DNA of 64,000 bases from positions 26,188-90,187 of the forward strand of contig NZ_AQXC01000011.1 in NCBI RefSeq assembly GCF_000375525.1. Direction: 5' to 3'. A model generated the notes under the pieces. It was not told the DNA's origin, did no database searches, and was given only the letters and a program-made list of their open reading frames with translations. A program made the translations under genes and the position numbers. Origin of the DNA: Corynebacterium propinquum DSM 44285 (GTDB taxonomy: Bacteria > Actinomycetota > Actinomycetes > Mycobacteriales > Mycobacteriaceae). Positions 1 through 1,866 of the stretch are shown in pieces. The stretch's first letter is position 1, and each line of letters opens with the position of its first letter.

Positions 1-756
1 AAACCGCTTGGTGTCATCGCCGTCGCTGAGCCAACGAAACCGGTCTCAGTTGAGGCTCCGGAACCAACACCACTTCGCGAAATCCGGGTCACCGAACTGG
101 AGACCACCCGCACCGTAAAATCACCGCCTGAGCGCAAGGTCATCTCTCCGACCACACCAAAGCAGCGAAAATTAGCCCCGGTACACACTCCGGAACAACA
201 ACCGCTGCGGGAAGTCAACGTGTCAGCACCAGCTGCCTTACGGGAGATCTCTGTCGGTGAGCTTCCGGAAGTATCGGTTGCTACGCCAAAGCAGCAACCA
301 CTACGCGAAGTTACTGTGCCGGAACCACAAGAGCTGACGAACGTCAACACTCGCACATTTGCACCGCGTTCAGTCTCACTACCGCCCGAGCGAAAACTGC
401 GTGAAGTGGTCTCGCACAAACCACGTGTCCGCAGCGTTACTGCTCCAAAACCGCGGAAACCGCGTGCGGTTGATGTGCGCCGGAAGAAACTTCGTAAGGT
501 ACAAGCTCCACGACCAGTGCCGTTGCGCGACATAGAAGTTGCCGACTTGGGGCACCCTCGTAAACCCGAGGTACCGAAGCCACGGAAACTGCGGAAGGTG
601 CGCACACCAATGAAGCAGCAACTGCGGAAACCGTACGCCCCTGCCGATCATCCTTTCCGTTCAGTCACCGTTCCCCAACCGCAACCGTTGCGCGCGATCT
701 ATCTCAAAGATCCACGCGAAGTAGCCCGAGAGATTAGAGGTGGTTCACGTGGCTAA
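1..756 (+). CDS. Repeat-rich basic protein, 5' end outside window
   Basis: The frame is open from base 1 to the TAA at 754-756, giving about 251 residues without a start, so the N-terminus lies upstream. I recognise no domain. The visible part is built almost entirely of degenerate 10-12-residue units with a pattern like P-L-R-E-V-x-V-x-x-P, rich in Pro, Arg, Lys and Val. The units drift from acidic/neutral at the left to strongly basic at the right. The end overlaps the ribosome-binding site of the next gene, so it is probably co-transcribed and coupled to the two envelope-stress membrane proteins that follow. An upstream Asp23/Gls24-type gene would be expected from such operons, but this is inference. 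Confidence 0.6.
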   Translation, partial: KPLGVIAVAEPTKPVSVEAPEPTPLREIRVTELETTRTVKSPPERKVISPTTPKQRKLAPVHTPEQQPLREVNVSAPAALREISVGELPEVSVATPKQQPLREVTVPEPQELTNVNTRTFAPRSVSLPPERKLREVVSHKPRVRSVTAPKPRKPRAVDVRRKKLRKVQAPRPVPLRDIEVADLGHPRKPEVPKPRKLRKVRTPMKQQLRKPYAPADHPFRSVTVPQPQPLRAIYLKDPREVAREIRGGSRG

Positions 757-1306
757 GGAGGCTTCGTTCCAAGGACAAGAACCAAAGGCATCGCCGATCG
801 CGCGTGCTTTGAGCGTTCTCCTCGGCCTTGTGCTGTTGGCGTTAGCTGGAGTATTAGTCCGCGAAATCTGGCTCGTACTTCCGAACGACGCACAGCAAAG
901 TTGGGTCACCCCAATCACGGATTTCTTCGGTCAAGATGAACTTCCTGAATGGATCGTCTGGGTCGGCGTGGGTTCGATCGTCGTTGGCTTATTACTGCTT
1001 ATCGTGGCTTTCAAACCTCGGCCACGCACACACCGCGCGGTAAACAGCACCGCTGCAGCCTGGATGCGCCCAGTAGACATTGCACGCATCAGCTCGGCTA
1101 CGGCACAACAATTACCAGGTGCTCGATCGGCTCACTCGAAGATATCGAAAAAGAAGCTTCAGGTTGTGATCGAAGGCGACGTCAACGATTCTTCGTTGCC
1201 ACAGCGCGCTGAGGAAGCTATCAGCAGAAAGCTTGCCTTTTTGCAGAACCCACCCGTTATCGATGTCAGCGTCGAAAATGAACACTCCCAGGAGGGCGTA
1301 TCATGA
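749..1306 (+). CDS. DUF6286-like membrane protein of an Asp23/AmaP-type operon
   Basis: A protein of about 185 residues with two hydrophobic segments (roughly residues 20-43 and 68-88) separated by a short loop, followed by a soluble C-terminal domain of about 95 residues. This matches small envelope-stress membrane proteins found in actinobacterial Asp23/alkaline-shock clusters. Two in-frame GTG starts exist, at 740 and 749. I prefer 749 because AGAGG at 736-740 sits eight bases before it. The gene begins inside the end of the repeat protein and its stop overlaps the ATG of the next gene (ATGA), so the three are translationally coupled. The domain name comes from memory of the family; function is inferred. 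Confidence 0.6.
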   Translation: MAKEASFQGQEPKASPIARALSVLLGLVLLALAGVLVREIWLVLPNDAQQSWVTPITDFFGQDELPEWIVWVGVGSIVVGLLLLIVAFKPRPRTHRAVNSTAAAWMRPVDIARISSATAQQLPGARSAHSKISKKKLQVVIEGDVNDSSLPQRAEEAISRKLAFLQNPPVIDVSVENEHSQEGVS

Positions 1307-1866
1307 GCAAACTGACCGCTTTCATCGATCGGTTCATCTTCTTCCTCATCGCGATCGGCCTGATCGTATTTGGGCTGTGGCCAGTCCTGGTGCACTTTGA
1401 CGTGCAATTTGCCAAAGACCTAGCGCTCTGGAGAGACCCAGAAGCGTGGAAAACGCTACCTGAGCAAGATTGGTACGAATACCTGCTATGGGGTGTGCTG
1501 GCGGGATCGATCATTATCGGTTTGTGGTTGATCATCATCAACCTCCGTCGCCGTACGTTCTCGCAGGTAGGTTCCACGGCATCGGATTCTGCTGGCGAGA
1601 TTACGATGCACATTGGACATATTGCCAAGGCGGTCGCGGCTCAACTAGAGACCGACTCCGACATAACCTCGGCGAAGCACAAGGTGTCCATCGACCGGGC
1701 ACGTCCGACCATTGAGTTCACTGTTACTGCTCGACCCGAGGCGGATTTAACCAAGCTCAACGACATGATCGAGACCAGCGAAGCAGACTTGCGGGATGCC
1801 ATCGAGGACGTCGATATCGATACTGTTTACCGGTTGCATATGGACAAAGTCGAGCCTGCCGTTTAG
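1303..1866 (+). CDS. AmaP-like alkaline-shock membrane anchor protein
   Basis: A 187-residue protein with two membrane helices (about residues 10-30 and 60-80) joined by a loop, then a basic RRR stop-transfer signal and a cytosolic alpha/beta domain containing a GEITMHIGHIAKAVAAQL stretch. This is the architecture of AmaP-type anchors, which hold Asp23/Gls24 proteins at the membrane in Gram-positive bacteria. Its start overlaps the preceding stop by four bases and a clear intrinsic terminator follows, so it is the last gene of the operon. The family call is fair. A specific role in this organism is inference. Confidence 0.6.
   Translation: MSKLTAFIDRFIFFLIAIGLIVFGLWPVLVHFDVQFAKDLALWRDPEAWKTLPEQDWYEYLLWGVLAGSIIIGLWLIIINLRRRTFSQVGSTASDSAGEITMHIGHIAKAVAAQLETDSDITSAKHKVSIDRARPTIEFTVTARPEADLTKLNDMIETSEADLRDAIEDVDIDTVYRLHMDKVEPAV

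What the first reader, a model, noticed from the sequence alone, without database searches (positions are those of the whole stretch)
1..756. Repeat protein of 10-12-residue units coupled to an envelope-stress operon
More than 20 degenerate units of the type P-L-R-E-V-x-V-x-x-P fill the visible part, and charge shifts from mixed to strongly basic along the chain. It overlaps the ribosome-binding site of the AmaP/DUF6286-type genes. A basic, Pro-phased rod linked to an Asp23-like membrane complex is not something I know as described. It could bind anionic wall polymers or nucleic acid.
Basis: partly seen in the sequence, partly recalled or inferred. Interest (0 to 1): 0.5.

Follow-up and report, generated by a model that had tools for sequence, protein, structure and literature searches.

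The report
Asp23-family protein with 11-residue repeats
In Corynebacterium, a protein of a stress complex thought to sit under the cell membrane carries a long, probably floppy tail built from copies of one 11-amino-acid motif, and the tail mostly grows and shrinks by whole copies, which suggests a row of docking sites rather than a stiff rod.

Summary
Window 1-756 is the 3' end of a 473-residue gene that starts upstream. Its N-terminus is an Asp23-family domain, so it is the fourth gene of a six-gene asp23/DUF6286/amaP operon rather than a separate repeat protein beside it. The domain does not explain the tail: an array of 11-residue units, P-x-P-[LV]-R-x-[VI]-x-[VAT]-P-x. 575 units in 61 corynebacterial tails against about 65 after shuffling; 268 neighbours exactly 11 apart against 0.3 (cross-validated). 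Among closer relatives, 33 of 45 internal gaps are 11, 22 or 33 residues. In all 61 hand-picked loci the gene lies before DUF6286. In other genera of the order, 23 of 23 unfused homologues end 6-36 residues after the domain with no unit; in three more genomes domain and DUF6286 are one frame. AlphaFold of two relatives gives a confident domain and a low-confidence, unstructured tail: no support for a rod. Wall-polymer binding is unlikely for a cytosolic protein. Best reading: a multivalent array of docking motifs in a membrane-anchored Asp23 complex; partner unknown.

The parts
1..756 (+). 3' part (251 aa and stop) of the 473-aa Asp23-domain protein with the repeat tail; the gene starts 666 bases before the window (L002:11023, G000:C11:25522)
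31..96 (+). two adjacent 11-residue units (PTKPVSVEAPE, PTPLREIRVTE)
   Evidence: profile segmentation
163..261 (+). three adjacent units (QRKLAPVHTPE, QQPLREVNVSA, PAALREISVGE)
292..357 (+). two adjacent units (QQPLREVTVPE, PQELTNVNTRT)
418..450 (+). one unit (KPRVRSVTAPK), in the strongly basic half
481..546 (+). two adjacent units (RKKLRKVQAPR, PVPLRDIEVAD)
580..711 (+). four adjacent units, the last PQPLRAIYLKD; a P..[LVF][RKT].[VI] core lies in the last 45 residues of 49 of 61 homologues
749..1306 (+). DUF6286 membrane protein, start overlapping the repeat gene (GTG 749, or GTG 740); two hydrophobic segments
   Evidence: Pfam PF19803 36.9 bits, cut-off 35; hydropathy
1303..1866 (+). AmaP-type membrane anchor; two hydrophobic segments
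   Evidence: NCBIfam NF033218 58.3 bits, cut-off 55

Best explanation
The gene encodes the second Asp23-family subunit of a cytosolic Asp23 complex held to the membrane by the DUF6286 and AmaP proteins of the same operon. Its C-terminal tail is a disordered 'beads on a string' array of an 11-residue linear motif, P-x-P-[LV]-R-x-[VI]-x-[VAT]-P-x. Each L-R-x-V core is proposed to dock weakly onto a folded partner, most plausibly the Asp23-type, DUF6286 or AmaP domains of the same complex, so that one tail cross-links several subunits; the number of sites is tuned by gaining or losing whole units. Shown here: domain, operon, 11-residue register, mostly unit-wise length change, stronger conservation of the core positions, no predicted structure in the tail. 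Inferred: location at the inner membrane face (from S. aureus Asp23/AmaP). Not shown: the docking itself and its partner.
For: Asp23 domain in the N-terminus (24.0 bits own, below the cut-off of 28; relatives L143 41.8, L149 48.1, L168 42.0, L172 39.8). The gene lies between the TM gene and the DUF6286 gene in 61 of 61 hand-picked loci, overlapping the first possible start of DUF6286 in 58 of 61. Domain and DUF6286 are one frame in L097, L098, L100, which links the two proteins. 11-residue register, recovered when trained on one half and tested on the other: 224 units against 47 reversed and 22-32 shuffled, and 288 against 89 and 31-47; neighbours 11 apart 81 against 4 and 0, and 126 against 6 and 0. 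Length changes in whole units: 33 of 45 gaps in 65 pairs, 18 of 27 distinct inserts, although no DNA-level tandem array is found in the own gene. In 18 pairs positions 4, 10, 1, 7, 5 are 0.93, 0.85, 0.82, 0.80, 0.79 identical against 0.59-0.71 at 2, 3, 6, 8, 11. All 61 tails hold at least 2 units; of 51 named loci, the 48 that are not Mycobacterium or Mycolicibacterium hold at least 1, the other 3 none. The tail has no relative elsewhere in the own genome. The C-tail of the first Asp23 protein is more acidic where this tail is longer (rho -0.33, p 0.009, uncorrected for relatedness, one of three tests).
Against: No partner was found. AlphaFold of single chains docks no unit on the protein's own Asp23 domain, neither in L123 nor in the short-tailed L168 (pLDDT falls 74, 61, 45 over the end). 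Tail codon differences are about 1:1 synonymous to nonsynonymous (1027:1056) against 477:113 in the domain: selection on the tail is loose. Position 9 (0.73) is no more conserved than residues outside units (0.72); 12 of 45 gaps are not multiples of 11. The other two charge tests failed: acidity of the first Asp23 protein's C-tail against net charge of this tail (rho 0.11, p 0.39) and of its second half (rho -0.05, p 0.72). Some tails are nearly free of units by the profile: 1 each in L166, L167, L168; 4 in 336 aa in L165 and L169.
Confidence: 0.48

Rival explanations
1. Electrostatic tether: the basic, Pro-rich tail binds anionic phospholipid (or nucleic acid) at the inner membrane face, with the repeats only a way to space charges.
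For: Own tail net +22; 53 of 61 tails net positive; second half more basic in 48 of 61. Arg is the commonest residue at unit position 5 (0.59).
Against: 8 of 61 tails are net negative, down to -14, and keep 5 to 10 units. Hydrophobic positions 4 and 7 and the prolines are as conserved as Arg or more.
Confidence: 0.25
2. Spacer: the tail is a flexible linker or entropic brush whose length matters and whose sequence matters little; repeats persist by duplication.
For: Tail length varies from 42 to 335 aa; loose selection; unit-wise length change is also what duplication without selection would give; relatives outside the genus join the two domains in one chain with a Pro-containing linker.
Against: Unit register and core positions are kept across the sample; a pure spacer needs no L-R-x-V core.
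Confidence: 0.2
3. Extended rod that binds wall polymers outside the cell.
For: Pro at regular spacing.
Against: No hydrophobic segment in the own protein (hydropathy only; in 4 of 61 homologues a weak one, which lies inside the Asp23 domain); Asp23/AmaP lie on the inner face in S. aureus (passages of PMC6954212); tail not predicted ordered.
Confidence: 0.03

Closest known systems
Asp23 (alkaline shock protein 23) and AmaP of Staphylococcus aureus
   Same: Asp23-family domain encoded with an AmaP-type membrane anchor. By passages of PMC6954212 Asp23 attaches to the inner membrane face through AmaP, and purified Asp23 forms long cord-like structures.
   Different: Here a second Asp23-family gene carries a 42-335 aa repeat tail, and the operon has DUF6286 and two further genes. 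No repeat tail is mentioned in the passages that I saw.
Asp23-domain proteins at the same operon place in Mycobacterium (L172, L173) and Mycolicibacterium (L171)
   Same: Same domain; two AmaP/DUF6286-like frames follow it in each.
   Different: 11 residues after the domain, no unit.
Asp23-DUF6286 single frames of three genomes of the same GTDB family (L097, L098, L100)
   Same: Asp23 domain and DUF6286 domain, which are neighbouring genes here, both above Pfam cut-offs.
   Different: One chain; 0, 1 and 0 units after the Asp23 domain.

Membership tests
Asp23 family (PF03780) | homology to the Asp23 domain by profile | tested here: met
   Own protein 24.0 bits, E 5.3e-5, below the curated cut-off of 28; homologues at the same operon place above it: L143 41.8, L149 48.1, L168 42.0, L172 39.8 bits; L124 23.1 and L129 25.2 below
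Asp23/AmaP membrane-anchored complex | AmaP-type anchor gene in the same operon | tested here: met
   Own AmaP 58.3 bits against cut-off 55; AmaP-type gene in 61 of 61 hand-picked loci; both profiles in 156 of 201 genomes, place in the genome not checked
Asp23/AmaP membrane-anchored complex | protein lies on the inner membrane face and binds AmaP | not testable with these tools
   No localisation data; no hydrophobic segment in own protein
Asp23/AmaP membrane-anchored complex | Asp23 filament formation | not testable with these tools
   Reported for S. aureus Asp23 (passages of PMC6954212); nothing here
Known sequence family or repeat for the tail | match in Pfam, NCBIfam, PHROGs or PDB sequences | tested here: inconclusive
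   Window part: no Pfam match at E up to 1, no PHROGs match at E up to 0.1, one PDB sequence at E 0.39. Whole protein: residues 170-218 match YfhG/QseG lipoprotein models at E 0.16 and 0.043, far below their cut-offs, taken as chance. Low-complexity sequence can hide relatives.

The most novel reading that the evidence does not exclude
The tail is a new class of bacterial tandem docking motif: a length-tunable ruler or cross-linker, one 11-residue unit (about 35 angstroms if extended, from general knowledge) per subunit, that lies along or bridges Asp23 filaments under the corynebacterial membrane and so sets the size or stiffness of that lattice.
Probability: 0.2. Interest if true: 0.7.

Novelty: new variant of a known kind. 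Interest (0 to 1): 0.45.

Why it matters
Asp23 family members are widespread in Gram-positive bacteria (passage of PMC5437119), yet the molecular function of Asp23 is called unclear (passage of PMC6954212). A genus in which one subunit carries a countable array of motifs gives a handle: the motif can serve as bait, and unit number can be varied, to find what the complex holds on to and whether it is a scaffold.

Tried and rejected
Charge pairing with the acidic C-tail of the first Asp23 protein: three tests, none corrected for relatedness; net charge against net charge fails (rho 0.11, p 0.39), against the second half fails (rho -0.05, p 0.72), against tail length rho -0.33, p 0.009; left open, not adopted. 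Docking of units on the protein's own domain: not predicted. DNA tandem array: none found in the own gene. Repeats as copies of the C-terminal R-V-x motif of Asp23 proteins (see noticed): spacing differs, and L072, L166 and L168 keep both. Second such tail in the own genome: only a weak match, E 2.43, within the same gene. PDB relatives of the domain by sequence: none significant. By fold: C-terminal domains of MamM-like transporters, Z up to 11.4, rmsd 1.8, 78 aligned, taken as a shared fold only. Literature: I saw listings (titles, starts of abstracts), and passages of five papers; none describes this tail; DUF6286 occurs in one paper of the library (not opened).

Caveats. The 60 comparison loci were picked by hand from the matches, so 61 of 61 is not a random sample. 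Pairs are not independent. One search left out L069 (run of unknown bases) and 14 of the 51 named loci (domain end not recognised), then near-identical tails (97 to 81); several of the distinct inserts are variants of one event. In one search this gene was chosen as the domain match nearest to DUF6286. My first tree used one and the same frame of L172 and of L173 for two proteins; it is replaced. By eye I had counted two units in L166 and L168; the profile accepts one. One search read one strand only and mixed in chance frames; one search replaces it.

Full report
What was checked. The open frame at 1-756 runs off the window. The genome is held; the window is G000:C11:26188-90187. The upstream stretch (L002) gives a complete gene of 473 aa, L002:11023-12444. 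One unknown base lies at L002:11688 in a CCN codon. The nearest named relatives are Corynebacterium sp. MSK297 (95% in the domain) and C. pseudodiphtheriticum DSM 44287 (85%).

Surroundings. The gene is the fourth of six in one direction: an Asp23 protein (158 aa, 97.6 bits), a 112-aa protein without Pfam match, a small protein with one hydrophobic segment, this protein, a DUF6286 protein and AmaP. Upstream on the other strand lies a cluster that I read as ribosomal proteins; downstream an antiporter-like gene and, on the other strand, genes that I read as tuf and fusA (names by recall from the translations, no family search run on them). Profiles built from the six proteins found the same order in all 61 loci (own and 60 picked by hand); the 112-aa gene was not detected in L064 and L090, and in most loci the first Asp23 gene was matched best by the profile of the fourth gene, so it was told apart by its place.

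Domain. Residues 42-135 match Asp23 at 24.0 bits, below the curated cut-off of 28; homologues at the same place pass it. AlphaFold was run on two relatives, because the own full-length reading contains the unknown base. In L168 (141 aa) the domain is confident apart from a loop at about 31-40, and the end falls to 61 and 45.

Repeat. Pooled over the tails, autocorrelation peaks at 11 and 22. A gapless 11-residue profile fitted to the 61 tails finds 575 units; the same profile on shuffled tails finds 64.8 (sd 8.4); neighbours exactly 11 apart number 268 against 0.3. Trained on 29 loci and tested on 32 it finds 224 units (47 reversed; 22-32 shuffled); trained on 32 and tested on 29, 288 (89; 31-47). 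The most informative positions are 4 (L 0.63, V 0.23), 7 (V 0.51, I 0.42), 5 (R 0.59) and 9 (V 0.34, A 0.25, T 0.19).

How it evolves. Tail lengths run from 42 to 335 aa; the window's own and L033 are the longest of the 61. In 65 pairs of tails at least 65% identical, the 45 internal gaps are 28 of 11, 1 of 22, 4 of 33 and 12 of other lengths; as distinct inserted sequences, 18 of 27 are multiples of 11. On a tree of AmaP, DUF6286 and domain sequences rooted on L171-L173, L090 and L089, with 9 and 8 units, branch off first (supports 0.91 and 1.00 for the groups of 60 and 59 tips that follow), and the two-unit proteins L058 and L072 lie inside a group of 9 whose other 7 have 5-16 units (support 0.91); several deep nodes are weak (0.18, 0.60, 0.63). 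So short tails look like contractions. Outside the genus, 23 of 23 unfused homologues of the order end 6-36 residues after the domain without a unit; of all 52 order-level frames examined, two hold one unit each, L098 and an L106 frame of the first Asp23 type. Of 51 named loci, L171-L173 have no unit, the other 48 have 1 to 21; L165 and L169 (C. parakroppenstedtii and C. pseudokroppenstedtii) have only 4 in 336 residues and L167, a MAG named Actinomycetales, 1 in 114.

Distribution. In 201 genomes of the genus the domain profile matches in 158 and AmaP in 157: 156 both, G114 and G199 the Asp23-type only, G124 AmaP only, 42 neither. The domain profile also sees the first Asp23 protein, so for this gene itself one search is the better count: 151 of 201 match the full protein at E up to 0.001, mostly in the domain.

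Mechanism. Three things argue for a working motif rather than filler: register kept across the sample, core positions more conserved than the rest of the unit, and length change mostly by whole units. Against strong claims: selection is loose (1027 synonymous to 1056 nonsynonymous codon differences, against 477 to 113 in the domain), and unit-wise change is also what duplication would give without selection. The place under the membrane is inferred from S. aureus (passages of PMC6954212) and from the single Asp23-DUF6286 frames L097, L098 and L100. I therefore favour a multivalent docking array with unknown partner, at about even odds, over an electrostatic tether and a plain spacer.

What is known. 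In passages of PMC5437119 Asp23 family members are called ubiquitous in Firmicutes and Actinobacteria, and B. subtilis YqhY is linked to lipid synthesis. Passages of PMC9769785 report lower expression of a Streptomyces Asp23/Gls24 gene after ethanol shock. One passage of PMC7456259 lists two C. pseudotuberculosis hypothetical proteins, Cp1002B_0362 and Cp1002B_0364, as Asp23 family; one passage of PMC10358988 names asp23 in new Corynebacterium species. None of these passages mentions repeats. Six searches listed no paper that describes the tail; the library lacks most subscription papers.

Noticed in passing
L097-L122 (order-level homologues), and the two Asp23 proteins of L002, L033-L092: Asp23 proteins of this operon in other genera end in R-V-x at the very C-terminus: one search prints 26 of 27 for the first Asp23 gene and 17 of 22 for the second; one L102 protein was sorted to the wrong class, and moving it by hand gives 26 of 26 and 17 of 23. 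In the 61 corynebacterial loci 20 and 6 end in R-[VI]-x. It looks like a C-terminal docking signal that the genus largely lost.
   Followed up: partly
L097:910-2007 (-), L098:1243-2433 (+), L100:919-1866 (-): Asp23 domain and DUF6286 domain in one open frame, both above Pfam cut-offs.
   Followed up: partly
L002:10473-10808: 112-aa product with no Pfam or NCBIfam match at E up to 1, detected in 59 of 61 loci; its end (RVDVIFSDA) resembles the last strand of Asp23 domains.
   Followed up: no
G030:C1:765254-765577 and C1:2566543-2566887: Two copies of the domain, each with an AmaP match within 3 kb, in one genome: probably two operons.
   Followed up: no
L138 (NZ_RJWA01000017.1, titled Micromonospora sp. 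HM5-17): Its tail end is that of the C. tuberculostearicum group; the 35.8-kb contig is probably a contaminant or misnamed.
   Followed up: no
L084 tail: Near-perfect array of EVYSPETADGI, period 11, an apparently recent expansion that departs from the usual unit.
   Followed up: no
L123 protein, residues 45-141 (domain): The predicted Asp23 domain is close in fold to C-terminal domains of cation diffusion facilitators such as MamM (Z 11.4).
   Followed up: no
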